From assembly GCA_900696465.1 (NCBI GenBank), contig CAADGE010000040.1:1-64000 (forward strand): a DNA stretch of 64,000 nucleotides. The letters run 5' to 3'. The position numbers and the translations under genes were made by a program. Of this stretch, positions 39,318 to 45,722 are shown piece by piece. Position 1 is the first letter of the stretch. The number at the start of each line of letters is the position of its first letter. The DNA is from an uncultured Planctomycetota bacterium. GTDB lineage: Bacteria > Planctomycetota > Phycisphaerae > UBA1845 > UTPLA1. The notes under the pieces are model-generated. The model did not search any database and had not been told where the DNA came from. It saw only the letters and a program-made list of their open reading frames with translations.

Positions 39318-40091
39318 ATGCTCGCGATCGAGACGGACATTCAGGAAGTCTGGCGAAATTACAAGCAGAACCCGACCAACGAACTGCGAAATCACCTGAT
39401 TCAGCAGTACGTTCACATCGTGCGGTACAACGCAGAGCGCATCCACGCGAAACTGCCGACCGAGGTCGAACTGGACGACCTCATCTCGGCGGGCATGTTC
39501 GGAATGATCGATGCCATCGAGGCCTACGACCTCGAGCGCGGCGTCAAGTTCGAGACCTATTGCTCACCGCGCGTGCGCGGGGCGATACTCGACGAGCTTC
39601 GCTCGATGGACTGGGTGCCGCGCCTGGTGCGCAATCGCTCGCAGAAGATCCAGGCCGCCACCAAGGAACTGCAGAGCGAGCTGGGTCGCGTGCCCACCGA
39701 GAAGGAGATCGCCGATCGCATCGGCGTCTCGCTGGCCGAGTTCGAGCGAATGAACAAGGACTCCAACGCCGTCTCGATGACTTCGCTCTCGCGAAAGGCA
39801 TATCAGAGTGATTCCACGCGCGACGTGACCGAGATCGATGTCCTGCGGGACGACCGATCGCTCACGCCCCCGCAAGAACTGCAGAAGCTCGACCTCAAGC
39901 AGCTCATCCAGCAGGGGCTCTCACCGATCGAGCGAATGATCATCGTCCTCTACTACTACGAGGAAATGACCATGAAGGAAATCGGTCTGACGCTCGACCT
40001 CTCCGAAAGCCGCGTCAGCCAGATGCACTCGGCCATCGTCGACCGGCTCCGCTTTCAGTTGCGACAGCGCGATAAGGAATTCAGGATTTAG
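39318..40091 (+). CDS. fliA: FliA/WhiG-type sigma-28 factor
   Basis: This 257-residue RNA polymerase sigma factor of the flagellar class has the region 2 motif ELDDLISAGMFGMIDAIEAY. It continues with FETYCSPRVRGAILDELRSM and DWVPRLVRNRSQKIQAATKE, the latter being the FliA/WhiG hallmark. Region 3 is EKEIADRIGVSLAEFE. Region 4 is SPIERMIIVLYYYEEMTMKE followed by IGLTLDLSESRVSQMHS. It should direct late genes (filament, chemotaxis, stator), none of which is in the window. FlgM was not seen. AGGAGA precedes ATG 39318. Confidence 0.93.
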   Translation: MLAIETDIQEVWRNYKQNPTNELRNHLIQQYVHIVRYNAERIHAKLPTEVELDDLISAGMFGMIDAIEAYDLERGVKFETYCSPRVRGAILDELRSMDWVPRLVRNRSQKIQAATKELQSELGRVPTEKEIADRIGVSLAEFERMNKDSNAVSMTSLSRKAYQSDSTRDVTEIDVLRDDRSLTPPQELQKLDLKQLIQQGLSPIERMIIVLYYYEEMTMKEIGLTLDLSESRVSQMHSAIVDRLRFQLRQRDKEFRI

Positions 40092-41889: not shown

Positions 41890-42882
41890 CTACGGGCGAT
41901 CGTTAAACCCCTTCGGGTGCGTGCGGTGCCATGCCCAGGCGCTGGCGACGATCTCGTTCAGGGTTGTGTACCGCGGCTGCCAGCCCAGTTCGCTTTGGAT
42001 GCGACTTGCATCGGCGCAGAGGATCGGCACGTCGCCGGCTCGCCGCGGGGACTCGACCACCGGGATCGGGTGACCGGTGACTTCGCGTGCCGCCTCGACG
42101 ACCTGGCGCACCGTCGCCCCGTGACCTGTGCCGGCGTTGAACGCGCGGAAGACGCCGGGCTTGATCGCGTCGAGCGAGCGGAGGTGGGCATCGGCAAGGT
42201 CTTCGACGTGGACGTAATCGCGCACGCAGGTGCCATCCGGCGTCGGGTAGTCCGTGCCGAAGATTTTTACGTGCTCGCGCTGGCCGAGGGCGACCTTGAG
42301 CACGTTGGGAATCAGGTGCGACTCGGGATCGTGGTCTTCGCCGATGGTGGCGTCCGCGACGGCGCCGGCGGCGTTGAAGTAACGCAGGGCTACGCAGCCC
42401 AGTCCCCATGCTGCGGCGGAATCCATCATCGCCCACTCGACGGCGAGTTTTGCCCGAGCGTAGGGGCTTTGCGGCGACGATGGCGTGTCTTCGGTGATGG
42501 GCATGCGCTCGGGCAGGCCGTAAATGGCGCAGGTGGAGCTGAAGACCATGCGGCGGATATCGTGGCGCTGCATCGCGGCGAGCAGGCGGACCGTGTTGCC
42601 GAGGTTGTTTTCATAGAACTTCAGCGGATGGACGACCGACTCACCGACTTCGATGAACGCGGCGAAGTGCATCACCGCGTCGTAGTGCTCCAGTGTCATC
42701 AGGTCGTCGAGCAAGGTTTCGTCGTGCAGGTCGCCCGCGACCAGTCGCGCATCGGTGTGGACAGCGGCGGCGTGTCCGGCGGAGAGATTGTCGAGCACGG
42801 TGACCCGATGTCCGGCGGAAACGAGCGCACGGACGGCATGGCTGCCGACATAACCTGCTCCACCGGTAACGAGTAAGTGCAT
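41890..42882 (-). CDS. galE: UDP-glucose 4-epimerase
   Basis: This 330-residue short-chain dehydrogenase-type epimerase interconverts UDP-glucose and UDP-galactose. It has the NAD-binding VTGGAGYVGSHAVRAL near the N-terminus, HFAAFIEVGESV, and the catalytic Ser/Thr in VFSSTCAIYG. The YxxxK motif reads YARAK, and RYFNAAGA and CVRDYVHVEDLADAH follow. All catalytic residues are present and the length is normal. It is transcribed alone on the minus strand, converging on the synthase gene and divergent from the small-peptide pair. Confidence 0.95.
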   Translation of the reverse strand: MHLLVTGGAGYVGSHAVRALVSAGHRVTVLDNLSAGHAAAVHTDARLVAGDLHDETLLDDLMTLEHYDAVMHFAAFIEVGESVVHPLKFYENNLGNTVRLLAAMQRHDIRRMVFSSTCAIYGLPERMPITEDTPSSPQSPYARAKLAVEWAMMDSAAAWGLGCVALRYFNAAGAVADATIGEDHDPESHLIPNVLKVALGQREHVKIFGTDYPTPDGTCVRDYVHVEDLADAHLRSLDAIKPGVFRAFNAGTGHGATVRQVVEAAREVTGHPIPVVESPRRAGDVPILCADASRIQSELGWQPRYTTLNEIVASAWAWHRTHPKGFNDRP

Positions 42883-43022
42883 CTGCGAAGCCCTCAGGTA
42901 ACGGGTAACTTATTTCAGCGTCTCAGGTTAGCAGTAGTTGAGCCGACGGTAAACAAGCGGGCCGTGGTGTGTAATGCGTTCGGTCGTCAGGCGATAAAGC
43001 GATCTATCTCTCGGGAAAAACA

Positions 43023-43050
43023 TTGATTCTCCGATAAATATCAATAGGAT
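43023..43050 (+). promoter_or_regulatory. Promoter of the tandem small-peptide unit
   Basis: TTGATT (43023-43028) and TAGGAT (43045-43050) are 16 bases apart. The inverted repeat ATTGAT (43022-43027)/ATCAAT (43040-43045) overlaps both hexamers and could be an operator. Confidence 0.45.
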
Positions 43051-43141
43051 ACGGCGCGTCCAGACGGTGTGCGTAGGATCGAGCACGGGCTCGACCGCAC
43101 GACTAACATCTTTCCCCAACCGGGATTTGGAGGAACGACGG

Positions 43142-43288
43142 ATGAATCTCCTTTGTTTAATCCTCGAACCCTCGATTTGTTTTACCCAGACGATCCTGAA
43201 CCTCGCGTGGTTCCCGCTCACATTCTTCGGCTTTACAGCGCCGGTCGTTGGCGACATCATCGGACCGGTTCTTGGTTGCACCTTCTGA
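43142..43288 (+). CDS. Tandem hydrophobic small peptide, copy 1
   Basis: This 48-residue peptide begins at ATG 43142 with GGAGG eight bases upstream, and is too short for routine gene calling. It is hydrophobic throughout with a central AWFPL motif and the end IIGPVLGCTF. It has 25 identical positions over 48, without gaps, with the next peptide, and many more conservative changes. Cys5 and Cys46 are shared; Cys13 is unique to this copy. Codons differ between copies while amino acids are kept (for example GGACCGGTTCTTGGTTGC versus GGTCCGATCGTGGGCTGC), which argues for protein-level selection. One membrane-spanning or membrane-associated helix pair is plausible. I recognise no family. Confidence 0.7.
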   Translation: MNLLCLILEPSICFTQTILNLAWFPLTFFGFTAPVVGDIIGPVLGCTF

Positions 43289-43395
43289 CGCAGGCTGCGT
43301 CGATGGCGATGCCCTGACACACGGTAGCAATGCGGCTCGGGCGTGTGCCTGGGCGCGGGGTATCGTCGGCTCCCGCTCTAGACATGGAGGTTTTC

Positions 43396-43542
43396 ATGGG
43401 AATTATCTGCACGCTTCTGAACCCGTTTGTGAATGTCTCGCAGCAGCTTCTGAACATTGCCTGGTTCCCGCTGAGCATCTTCGGCATCCAGGCGCCAACG
43501 GTCGGCACCATCATCGGTCCGATCGTGGGCTGCAACTTCTGA
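43396..43542 (+). CDS. Tandem hydrophobic small peptide, copy 2
   Basis: This 48-residue paralogue of copy 1 starts 107 bases after its stop. ATG 43396 has GGAGG five bases upstream; the longer open frame from 43330 has no ribosome site and no similarity to copy 1 before this ATG. It shares Cys5, Pro10, Gln16, AWFPL, the AP-V-G segment, IIGP and the C-terminal GC-F. A strong terminator follows 37 bases later, so the pair forms a closed unit of about 0.6 kb. Size, hydrophobicity and tandem layout fit a membrane-acting peptide, a peptide secreted without leader, or a small membrane-complex subunit; nothing in the sequence decides among these. Confidence 0.7.
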   Translation: MGIICTLLNPFVNVSQQLLNIAWFPLSIFGIQAPTVGTIIGPIVGCNF

Positions 43543-43579
43543 TCGCCGACCCGTTCCACGAATAAGATCGCAGACAATC

Positions 43580-43628
43580 GAACACGCTCATGGCCGGTCA
43601 CCCGGCCCCGGGCGTGTTCTCGCTTTTT
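43580..43628 (+). terminator. Intrinsic terminator of the small-peptide unit
   Basis: GAACACGC (43580-43587) pairs with GCGTGTTC (43612-43619) around an inner GGCCGG/CCGGCC stem. Five T follow at 43624-43628. Confidence 0.75.
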
Positions 43629-43696: not shown

Positions 43697-45232
43697 TCAG
43701 AAGGGGGCCTGCGATTCGTCGTCGGTCGGCGGCTCGCCCGGGTCTTCGTAAACCGCGGAGCCGTGACCGCCCTCGTAACCGCCGTCGTGGACATAGGACG
43801 GGGCGGCGTTGTCGAAGCGAGCGTACTGCGGGTTGAAGTGCAGTTCGACGTCGCCCGTCGGTCCGTTTCGCTGCTTGGCCACGATCAACTCGGCCTTGCC
43901 CTTGATCCGATTGAGCATCTCGATTCCTTCGGGCGTCTGGCTCTTCTTCTTGCTGAGGTAGTACTCCTCGCGGTGCAGAAGTGCCACCACGTCGGCATCC
44001 TGCTCGATGGCCCCGCTCTCGCGCAGGTCGCTCATGCGCGGGCGGTTGCCCTCGCGTCCTTCCACCTGGCGATTGAGCTGTGCCAGGGCCACGACCGGAA
44101 TGTTCAGCTCGCGGGCCAGTGCCTTGAGGCCGCGGCTGATCGCGGCGATCTCCTGCTGACGGCTTTCGGCGGAGGCCCGATCGTACATGAGCTGGAGATA
44201 ATCCACGAAAATGACGCGAATGTCGTGCAGCATCTTGAGGCGACGGGCCTTGGCGCGCAGCTCCATGACGCTCATGCCCGGCGTATCGTCGATGAAGATC
44301 TTGTAGTTCCGCATGTTGCCGCAGACGAGCTTGAGCTTGGTGCGTTCCTGCTCGGTGAGGCGGCCGTGCCGCAGGCGATGCATGTCGACCTGGGCGTGTG
44401 AACAGATCATGCGCTGGGCGATCTGCAGCTTACCCATTTCCATCGAGAAGAAGGCGCAGGGCTGGTTTTCAACGATGCCGATGTAGTCGAGCATCGACAG
44501 GGCCAGCGCCGTCTTGCCCATGCTGGGCCGCGCCGCGACGACGATCATGTCGCCGAATTGCATGCCGCCGAGCAGGTGATCCAACTCGGTAAAGCCAGTC
44601 GGCACGCCGGTCAGGTGCCCTTCCTGGAAGCTCTCGATCTGCTGCATGGTCTGATCGAGAAACTCGCGGATCTGGACGACCTGATTCGAGATGCGCTGCT
44701 CGGCGACCGCGAAAAGCTCCTTCTCCGCCTGATCGAGGATCGTCGTGGCATCTTCTTCCTGATCGTAGGCCGACTGCATGATCCGGCCGGTGCATTGAAT
44801 CAGATCGCGGAGCAGGGCCTTGTCGCGGACGATGCGGGCGTAGTACTCGGCATTGGCCGCCGAGGGGACGGACTGGACCAGGTCGATGAGATAGTCGCGC
44901 CCGCCCACGTCTTCATAAATGCCGCGGCGCGTCAGCTCTTCTTCAACGACATGGATGTCGATGGGTTTGTTCTGGTCGTAAACGTCGATCAGCGTTTCGT
45001 AGAGAAGGCGGTGATCTGGCCGGTAGAAGCGCGCGGCCTCCTCCCGCGGGATGATCTGCAGGACCAACCCGACGGCGTTGCGGTCGAGCAGCATCGCACC
45101 CAGCAGGGCCGTCTCGGCCTCGAGATTCTGCGGCGGGAGCTTTCCGCCGGCGACGGGATCAAGCGTTCGCGCGCCCGGCGTCGGACGTCCCTGCGACGGC
45201 GTCTGTGTCTGCGTCGTTGCGGCTGGTGGCAT
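43697..45232 (-). CDS. dnaB: Replicative DNA helicase DnaB
   Basis: This 511-residue hexameric helicase works at the replication fork. The N-terminal DnaB domain begins at LPPQNLEAETALLGAMLLD. The RecA-like domain has Walker A ARPSMGKTALALSM, Walker B VIFVDYLQLM, and LAQLNRQVEGREGNRPRMSD followed by LRESGAIEQDADV. ATG 45232 is chosen because AACGGAGGTC lies 6 bases upstream; the frame stays open to 45292 without support. The first 74 bases therefore overlap the 3' end of rplI. No intein is present. It is the last gene of the minus-strand operon. Confidence 0.96.
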   Translation of the reverse strand: MPPAATTQTQTPSQGRPTPGARTLDPVAGGKLPPQNLEAETALLGAMLLDRNAVGLVLQIIPREEAARFYRPDHRLLYETLIDVYDQNKPIDIHVVEEELTRRGIYEDVGGRDYLIDLVQSVPSAANAEYYARIVRDKALLRDLIQCTGRIMQSAYDQEEDATTILDQAEKELFAVAEQRISNQVVQIREFLDQTMQQIESFQEGHLTGVPTGFTELDHLLGGMQFGDMIVVAARPSMGKTALALSMLDYIGIVENQPCAFFSMEMGKLQIAQRMICSHAQVDMHRLRHGRLTEQERTKLKLVCGNMRNYKIFIDDTPGMSVMELRAKARRLKMLHDIRVIFVDYLQLMYDRASAESRQQEIAAISRGLKALARELNIPVVALAQLNRQVEGREGNRPRMSDLRESGAIEQDADVVALLHREEYYLSKKKSQTPEGIEMLNRIKGKAELIVAKQRNGPTGDVELHFNPQYARFDNAAPSYVHDGGYEGGHGSAVYEDPGEPPTDDESQAPF

Positions 45233-45722
45233 CGGTGACCTCCGTTTCACTCGCTTCGTCGTCCATCTCACCGGCACGTTTCTCGGCGACAACCCAGACC
45301 TTGACGGTCGATCGGATGTCGTCCGCCAGAACGACCGGCACTTCCTGTGCGCCGACTTCCTTGATGTTGTGCGACATCTTGATCTGATCAGCGTGGACCG
45401 AGTGGCCCTCCTGCATCAGGGCATGCGCGATCTCGCGCGGTCCCACCGAGCCGTACAGGTGCCCGTCGGGCGTGCAGGCGGCGCTGATTGTGACTTCGGC
45501 GCCGTTGAGCCGGCCGGCCGTCTGGAGAAGCACCTCGCGAATGCGGGCGCGTTCCGCCGCGGCGATCTTTTTGTCTTCCTCGATGGCTTTGAGATTCGCC
45601 TTGGTCGGCGTCAGGGCCAGCCGATGTGGCAGGAGATAGTTACGTGCGTAACCGTCCGTGACGTCGACGATGTCGCCGCACAGGCCGAGCTTGTGAATGT
45701 CTTTTCGTAAGAGCAGCTTCAT
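45159..45722 (-). CDS. rplI: 50S ribosomal protein L9 with C-terminal extension
   Basis: This 187-residue L9 has the N-terminal rRNA-binding motif (KLGLCGDIVDVTDGYARNYL, then LPHRLAL), the long connecting helix, and a C-terminal domain ending near KVWVVAEK (about residue 149). A further tail of about 38 residues is acidic and Thr/Ala-rich, not found in typical L9 of about 150 residues. The tail is read in a different frame from the dnaB N-terminus that it overlaps. The order rpsR-rplI-dnaB is conserved in many bacteria. Confidence 0.95.
   Translation of the reverse strand: MKLLLRKDIHKLGLCGDIVDVTDGYARNYLLPHRLALTPTKANLKAIEEDKKIAAAERARIREVLLQTAGRLNGAEVTISAACTPDGHLYGSVGPREIAHALMQEGHSVHADQIKMSHNIKEVGAQEVPVVLADDIRSTVKVWVVAEKRAGEMDDEASETEVTDATSRNDADTDAVAGTSDAGRANA

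What the first reader, a model, noticed from the sequence alone, without database searches (positions are those of the whole stretch)
43023..43628. Self-contained cassette of two paralogous 48-residue hydrophobic peptides
Two small genes of identical length (25 of 48 residues identical, no gaps) each have a GGAGG site and share one promoter with an overlapping inverted repeat and one strong terminator. AWFPL, IIGP and the terminal GC-F are conserved with different codons, so selection acts on protein. They match no family I know and are too short for routine annotation. Membrane-active peptide, secreted peptide or a heteromeric membrane complex are possible.
Basis: partly seen in the sequence, partly recalled or inferred. 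Interest (0 to 1): 0.72.

Follow-up and report, generated by a model that had tools for sequence, protein, structure and literature searches.

The report
Clade-specific cysteine-paired small hydrophobic proteins
Two overlooked 48-residue genes turn out to belong to a real, unnamed family of tiny acidic, lysine-free, membrane-seeking proteins found so far only in one family of planctomycete bacteria, where most genomes carry one to four of them; what they do is still unknown.

Summary
Two 48-codon genes lie at 43142-43288 and 43396-43542, 52% identical without gaps, each with a ribosome-binding site, between divergent galE and convergent dnaB, with one strong terminator. They belong to an unnamed protein family. 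Iterated profile searches found relatives in 14 of 17 genomes of the window's own taxonomic family (plus one doubtful), in 0 of 97 other genomes of the order, and no credible hit in class and phylum samples. In 12 genomes the gene sits at the same galE/moeA-dnaB place, single in 11, so the window pair is a local duplication, not an obligate two-part system. Ortholog dN/dS is 0.09-0.30. I read 35 members: 44-63 residues, no lysine or histidine, net charge about -2, amphipathic first helix, two cysteines near the ends that are both kept (32) or both absent (3). Pfam, NCBIfam, PHROGs, PDB, phages and plasmids give no credible relative. A GCCGATA-like element lies upstream of many copies; a flagellar sigma-28 reading was tested and is not supported. 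Best guess: a leaderless, membrane-bound helical hairpin whose terminal cysteines pair. Its role is not shown. Real, new as a family, lineage-restricted; moderately interesting.

The parts
43030..43037 (+). TCCGATAA, the window's copy of the upstream element shared by many family members (consensus GCCGATaa)
   Evidence: De novo motif search; [GT]CCGATA in 11 of 26 leading genes against 0.5 expected, 2 of 26 on the opposite strand; 8 of 22 after dropping near-identical orthologs against 8 of 188 control upstreams, Fisher p 3e-5
43022..43045 (.). 6-bp inverted repeat ATTGAT-N12-ATCAAT around the element; may be chance
43142..43288 (+). p1, 48-aa acidic hydrophobic protein, cysteines 5, 13 and 46
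43396..43542 (+). p2, 48-aa paralogue with no charged residue at all, cysteines 5 and 46
43580..43628 (+). intrinsic terminator of the p1-p2 unit
   Evidence: fold -33.2 kcal/mol, z -3.36; T run in sequence
41890..42882 (-). galE-type epimerase, divergent neighbour; syntenic marker
   Evidence: Pfam PF01370; conserved position
43697..45262 (-). dnaB helicase, convergent neighbour; syntenic marker
   Evidence: Pfam PF03796, PF00772; conserved position

Best explanation
p1 and p2 are tandem duplicates of a vertically inherited, clade-specific gene for a leaderless small protein. The protein is an acidic, almost basic-residue-free amphipathic helix (about residues 3-27), a turn at FG-x-x-P, and a short second helix (36-44). 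It binds or inserts in the membrane by itself, and its N-terminal and C-terminal cysteines act as a pair, most simply as a disulfide or shared thiol site that closes the hairpin or links subunits. The narrow polar face (Gln16, Asn/Asp20) would carry self-association. The most likely role is a structural or regulatory component of the cell envelope of this lineage, made from its own small transcription unit. Shown: family, distribution, synteny, selection, composition, joint presence of the cysteines, amphipathicity of helix 1. Inferred: membrane location, disulfide, oligomer, envelope role.
For: Family and distribution: profile searches. On a DnaB tree the 13 carriers that have a DnaB form one branch (support 89/91, below the tool's mark of confidence) beside a sister branch (97/91) of three genomes, two without the family and one doubtful. 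Synteny of three recurring settings. Purifying selection, dN/dS 0.09-0.30 in five ortholog pairs with dS below 1. No Lys or His and 12 Arg in 1721 residues of 35 members; 26 of 35 have no basic residue against about 3% of 138 similarly hydrophobic windows of neighbouring proteins; hydrophobic moment of 20 residues from the first cysteine above the mean of its shuffles in 35 of 35, mean z 1.86; cysteines both present in 32 and both absent in 3, never one. AlphaFold model of p2: helices 3-22, 24-27, 36-44, mean pLDDT 77.6, pTM 0.49, from only 3 sequences.
Against: No expression, localisation or redox evidence exists. The model is of moderate confidence and says nothing about membrane or oligomer. 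The three members without cysteines belong to one genus, so this is one event, and they are still under constraint (dN/dS 0.23, 0.30 and 0.31 among the three): the pair is not indispensable. Foldseek found no match in the PDB, which says little for so short a model. The neighbours give no functional hint.
Confidence: 0.5

Rival explanations
1. Exported leaderless amphipathic peptide, working like beta-type phenol-soluble modulins or leaderless bacteriocins: a surfactant or membrane-active agent released from the cell.
For: Length, amphipathic helix, negative net charge, no basic n-region, several copies with tandem arrays. The comparison with modulins is recalled; a paper search with five terms found no paper. 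A MacB/FtsX-type permease lies beside one member, L032, and an ABC ATPase upstream of another, L035 (by eye).
Against: No exporter, immunity or maturation gene was seen to recur beside the copies (neighbours of all members were not annotated). Stable inheritance at housekeeping places is unlike bacteriocins. No Lys or His, few Arg.
Confidence: 0.2
2. Small accessory subunit of a larger membrane complex, like CydX or KdpF (recalled examples).
For: Size, hydrophobicity, purifying selection.
Against: The recurring settings hold no membrane complex in the same operon; three unrelated settings; several copies in most carrier genomes.
Confidence: 0.15
3. Type I toxin of a toxin-antitoxin pair (hydrophobic toxin repressed by antisense RNA).
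For: Small hydrophobic product, multi-copy, tandem arrays, lineage-restricted.
Against: Orthologs at the same place in 12 genomes; no basic tail; p2 finds only E 3 or worse in phages and plasmids. Antisense RNA was not tested.
Confidence: 0.08
4. Flagellar late gene under sigma-28 (FliA).
For: The upstream element GCCGATAA equals the recalled sigma-28 -10 box; a FliA-type sigma factor (name by eye; sigma-70 regions by Pfam) lies at 39318-40091 at the end of a flagellar operon in the window.
Against: 13 of 30 flagellin upstreams of the same genomes show [CT]TAnnGAAAGTC-N13-CCCGATA; a pattern for that site found none in sense orientation before a peptide gene (one lies on the opposite strand of the interval before L048), and the base before CCGAT is G in 19 of 24 peptide upstreams rather than C. 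All 17 genomes have flagellin, also those without the peptide. 17 of 30 flagellin upstreams lack the site too, so its absence is not conclusive.
Confidence: 0.04

Closest known systems
Beta-type phenol-soluble modulins of staphylococci (recalled)
   Same: about 44 residues, leaderless, amphipathic, acidic, tandem copies
   Different: the modulins, as recalled, have no cysteine pair and contain lysine; no family match in the libraries searched; no recurring exporter nearby
Small single-helix membrane proteins such as CydX, KdpF or type I toxins (recalled)
   Same: short, hydrophobic, easily missed by annotation
   Different: here almost no basic residue, a terminal cysteine pair, a predicted second short helix, stand-alone genes in three recurring settings
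Circular or leaderless bacteriocins (recalled)
   Same: hydrophobic helical peptides of about 50 residues
   Different: those are mostly cationic and come with maturation, export and immunity genes; none were seen to recur here

Membership tests
Any Pfam, NCBIfam or PHROG family | profile match of convincing score | tested here: not met
   31 members scanned; best E 0.0095 in Pfam, 0.29 in NCBIfam, 0.0078 in PHROGs, each family in one or two members only
Type I toxin | hydrophobic peptide, usually with charged tail | tested here: inconclusive
   hydrophobic, but no basic tail
Type I toxin | antisense RNA antitoxin | not testable with these tools
   needs RNA-seq
Leaderless or circular bacteriocin | dedicated export, immunity or maturation genes | tested here: inconclusive
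   recurring neighbours are galE, moeA, dnaB, a secreted Gly/Ser-rich protein, an aromatic lyase and an Fe-S protein; single ABC-type genes beside L032 and L035; not every member's neighbours were annotated
Beta-type phenol-soluble modulin | amphipathic acidic helix without signal peptide | tested here: met
   moment z mean 1.86, mean charge -2.3
Beta-type phenol-soluble modulin | sequence homology | not tested
   no modulin was compared directly; general libraries gave no match
Sigma-28 regulon | -35 and -10 as in flagellins of the same genomes | tested here: not met
   flagellin site seen in 13 of 30 flagellin upstreams
Sec-exported protein or lipoprotein | basic n-region and signal peptide | tested here: not met
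   judged from composition, no predictor run: no Lys or His, 12 Arg in 35 members; 3-8 residues before the first cysteine in 31 of the 32 members that have cysteines, 13 in the other

The most novel reading that the evidence does not exclude
A protein kind born once in this planctomycete lineage and kept by all 13 placed members of one branch since: an acidic amphipathic hairpin almost free of basic residues, stapled by cysteines at its two ends, building a membrane or cell-surface structure for which no counterpart is known.
Probability: 0.2. Interest if true: 0.75.

Novelty: new variant of a known kind. Interest (0 to 1): 0.48.

Why it matters
It adds a well-supported small-protein family, absent from the family libraries searched, whose origin can be bracketed on a species tree, with orthologs, paralogues and a sister branch that largely lacks it: good material for asking how new membrane proteins arise. 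The jointly kept cysteines and the near absence of basic residues make concrete, testable predictions.

Tried and rejected
Sigma-28 control: attractive because the de novo motif is GCCGATAA and a FliA-type gene lies 3 kb away, but the site seen before 13 of 30 flagellins of the same genomes differs and was not found in sense orientation before a peptide gene. One such site lies on the opposite strand of the interval before L048, pointing at moeA. An exact TAAA-N14-17-GCCGATA pattern has 2 matches in the window's genome, neither before a peptide gene.

Conserved 5' UTR hairpins: by eye many members have one, but folding 38 upstreams against dinucleotide shuffles gave mostly z between -1.3 and +1 (lowest -2.26), so I dropped it. 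The spacer between p1 and p2 is not unusually structured, z 0.03.

Link to the secreted Gly/Ser-rich protein: 6 of 7 genomes of the family that hold it have a peptide gene divergent from it; around the seventh (G009) and the three found outside the family no peptide gene was detected. So at most a local association.

Weak hits beyond the family: 4 class genomes (E 0.008-0.02) and 9 phylum genomes (E 0.0011-0.016) are about as many as chance gives at that cut-off. G011's only hit (E 0.52) lies in a 2308-aa frame. Left out of the 35-member counts: G004's doubtful hit (L084), three cysteine-free relatives (L087, L198, L200), the contig-end fragment L083. Kept but individually less secure: L050, L086 and L199, all from the 75% complete G005 (E 0.0038, 0.69 and 0.019 with the 31-row profile).

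Searches for papers on planctomycete or taxonomically restricted small proteins listed nothing on this family (listings only; PMC11266412: passages only). This is not proof that nothing is in print. Viral contigs were not searched (one search failed).

Full report
WHAT IS THERE. Two 48-codon genes, p1 (43142-43288) and p2 (43396-43542), lie on the + strand between galE (divergent) and dnaB (convergent). They align without gaps, 25 of 48 identical. Each has a GGAGG before its ATG. A strong hairpin at 43580-43619 followed by a T run closes the unit (z -3.36). The sigma-70 scan found no promoter before p1.

A REAL FAMILY. Pfam has nothing for either. With p2 as query the whole genome shows only p2 itself and p1 (E 3.7e-14). 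A two-row profile of p1 and p2 over 120 relatives found members down to E 5.7e-4 in 12 other genomes of the family. I rebuilt the profile twice from what it found (20 rows; 31 rows). With the 20-row profile 15 of 114 genomes of the order match at E 0.01, all among the 17 of the window's own taxonomic family; 0 of the 97 others. With the 31-row profile 16 of 17 match at E 1, of which G011 (E 0.52 in a 2308-aa frame) is not credible and G004 (E 0.012) is doubtful; it also shows a third copy in the window's genome (C29, E 9.5e-15). In the class sample 18 of 397 match at E 0.02, 14 of them in the family (G004 included) and 4 others at E 0.008-0.02; in the phylum sample 10 of 392, the window's genome plus 9 at E 0.0011-0.016, about what chance gives. 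A profile scores its own rows high by construction; the independent support is, where it held only the two window proteins, and synteny.

WHO. A contig of the close relative G001 (89604 bases) agrees in length and content with QEVG01000017.1, Planctomycetota bacterium isolate PLA2. PMC11266412 (passages) says that genomes of the Phycisphaerae order UBA1845 come among others from anammox enrichments; that the window belongs to that order is only my inference.

INHERITANCE. In 12 genomes a member sits at the same place: divergent from galE or moeA and/or convergent with dnaB (window, L033-L038, L042, L044, L046, L048, L049). Only the window shows two copies there; some of these contigs are short (L034, 3308 bases). 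Six genomes have another copy divergent from a secreted Gly/Ser-rich protein (L039, L043, L045, L047, L085, L197). Four have two or three copies just downstream of an aromatic amino-acid lyase (L078, L080, L081, L082), and L079 lies before the same Fe-S protein as L078. L032, L040, L041, L050, L086 and L199 have none of these markers near. On a DnaB tree the 13 carriers with a DnaB form one branch (89/91), next to a sister branch (97/91) of G004, G011 and G013, of which two lack the family and one is doubtful. G005, a 75% complete carrier, has no DnaB match and is unplaced. One origin followed by duplication fits, as does loss in the sister branch.

SELECTION. Nei-Gojobori dN/dS for five ortholog pairs with dS below 1: 0.23, 0.09, 0.30, 0.30, 0.16. 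The other eight pairs have dS above 1.2: seven range 0.22 to 0.42, p1 against p2 being 0.24 at dS 1.7, and one is undefined. Pairs are 44 to 51 codons, so single values are rough.

ANATOMY. 35 members (33 plus L197 and L199) hold 1721 residues: Lys 0, His 0, Arg 12, Asp 75, Glu 19; 26 of 35 have no basic residue, against about 3% of 138 similarly hydrophobic windows from 66 neighbouring proteins. Cysteines: near the N end and near the C end in 32, neither in 3 (L038, L044, L048, one genus), never just one. C5, Q16, G30, P34, G45 and C46 are at or above 90% in the 31-row alignment. The 20 residues from the first cysteine have a hydrophobic moment above the mean of shuffled order in 35 of 35 (mean z 1.86). 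AlphaFold on p2 with 3 sequences: helices 3-22, 24-27 and 36-44, pLDDT 77.6, pTM 0.49; no PDB match by Foldseek and only one, E 2.4, by profile.

UPSTREAM ELEMENT. An unsupervised search of 200 nt before 32 leading genes gave GCCGATaa (log-likelihood 52.1; six sets with shuffled bases 19.9-22.9, run with fewer starts). [GT]CCGATA occurs in 11 of 26 (three doubtful relatives and three G005 genes dropped), 0.5 expected, 2 of 26 on the opposite strand, against 8 of 188 upstreams of neighbouring ORFs. After dropping four near-copies it is 8 of 22, p 3e-5, and 0 of 29 flagellin upstreams. In p1, L032, L033 and L037, all of the window's genus, the element (TCCGATAA in p1, GCCGAAA in the others) stands 112-115 nt before the start codon. 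It looked like sigma-28, but 13 of 30 flagellin upstreams show GAAAGTC-N13-CCCGATA, and no such site was found in sense orientation before a peptide gene. I take it as a shared control element of unknown factor.

FUNCTION. The sequence argues for a leaderless amphipathic membrane protein with a cysteine pair. That both cysteines are absent together argues that they work together, though this is a single event. An obligate p1-p2 heteromer is unlikely because 11 of 12 orthologous places hold one gene. Mobile-element or toxin readings are disfavoured by stable housekeeping positions and no credible hit of p2 in phages or plasmids. What it does in the cell remains open.

Noticed in passing
window 18572-40091: A long flagellar operon on the + strand (names by eye: fliF, fliG, fliH, fliI, flgD, flgE, fliL, fliN, fliP, fliR, flhB, flhA, flhF, flhG) ending in a FliA-type sigma factor (sigma-70 regions by Pfam).
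   Followed up: partly
L213-L220, L224, L228, L234, L237, L240, upstream of flagellin genes: 13 of 30 flagellin upstreams in this family show a strict site GAAAGTC-N13-CCCGATA, a good candidate sigma-28 promoter for this lineage.
   Followed up: partly
L217, L218, L220, L222, L223, L228, L237, L240, L241, about 45-75 nt before the flagellin start: Inverted repeat such as GGCATGC-ACGGTT-GCGTGCC with a loop beginning A-N-G-G in these 9 loci, resembling a CsrA-binding hairpin (the resemblance is recalled). Similar repeats with other loops in L213, L216 and L219.
   Followed up: no
L087:5265-5414 and L198:4480-4632: Cysteine-free small acidic hydrophobic proteins in G000 and G001, 50% identical to each other, weakly like the family: possibly a sister family.
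   Followed up: partly
L085:5552-6913 and its homologues: Secreted (by eye) Gly/Ser-rich protein; its homologue in L039 has no Pfam match. A family member is divergent from it in 6 of the 7 genomes of the family that hold it.
   Followed up: partly
L048, interval between moeA and the peptide gene (minus strand): A sigma-28-like site GAAAGTT-N9-GGCCGATA points away from the peptide gene toward moeA.
   Followed up: no
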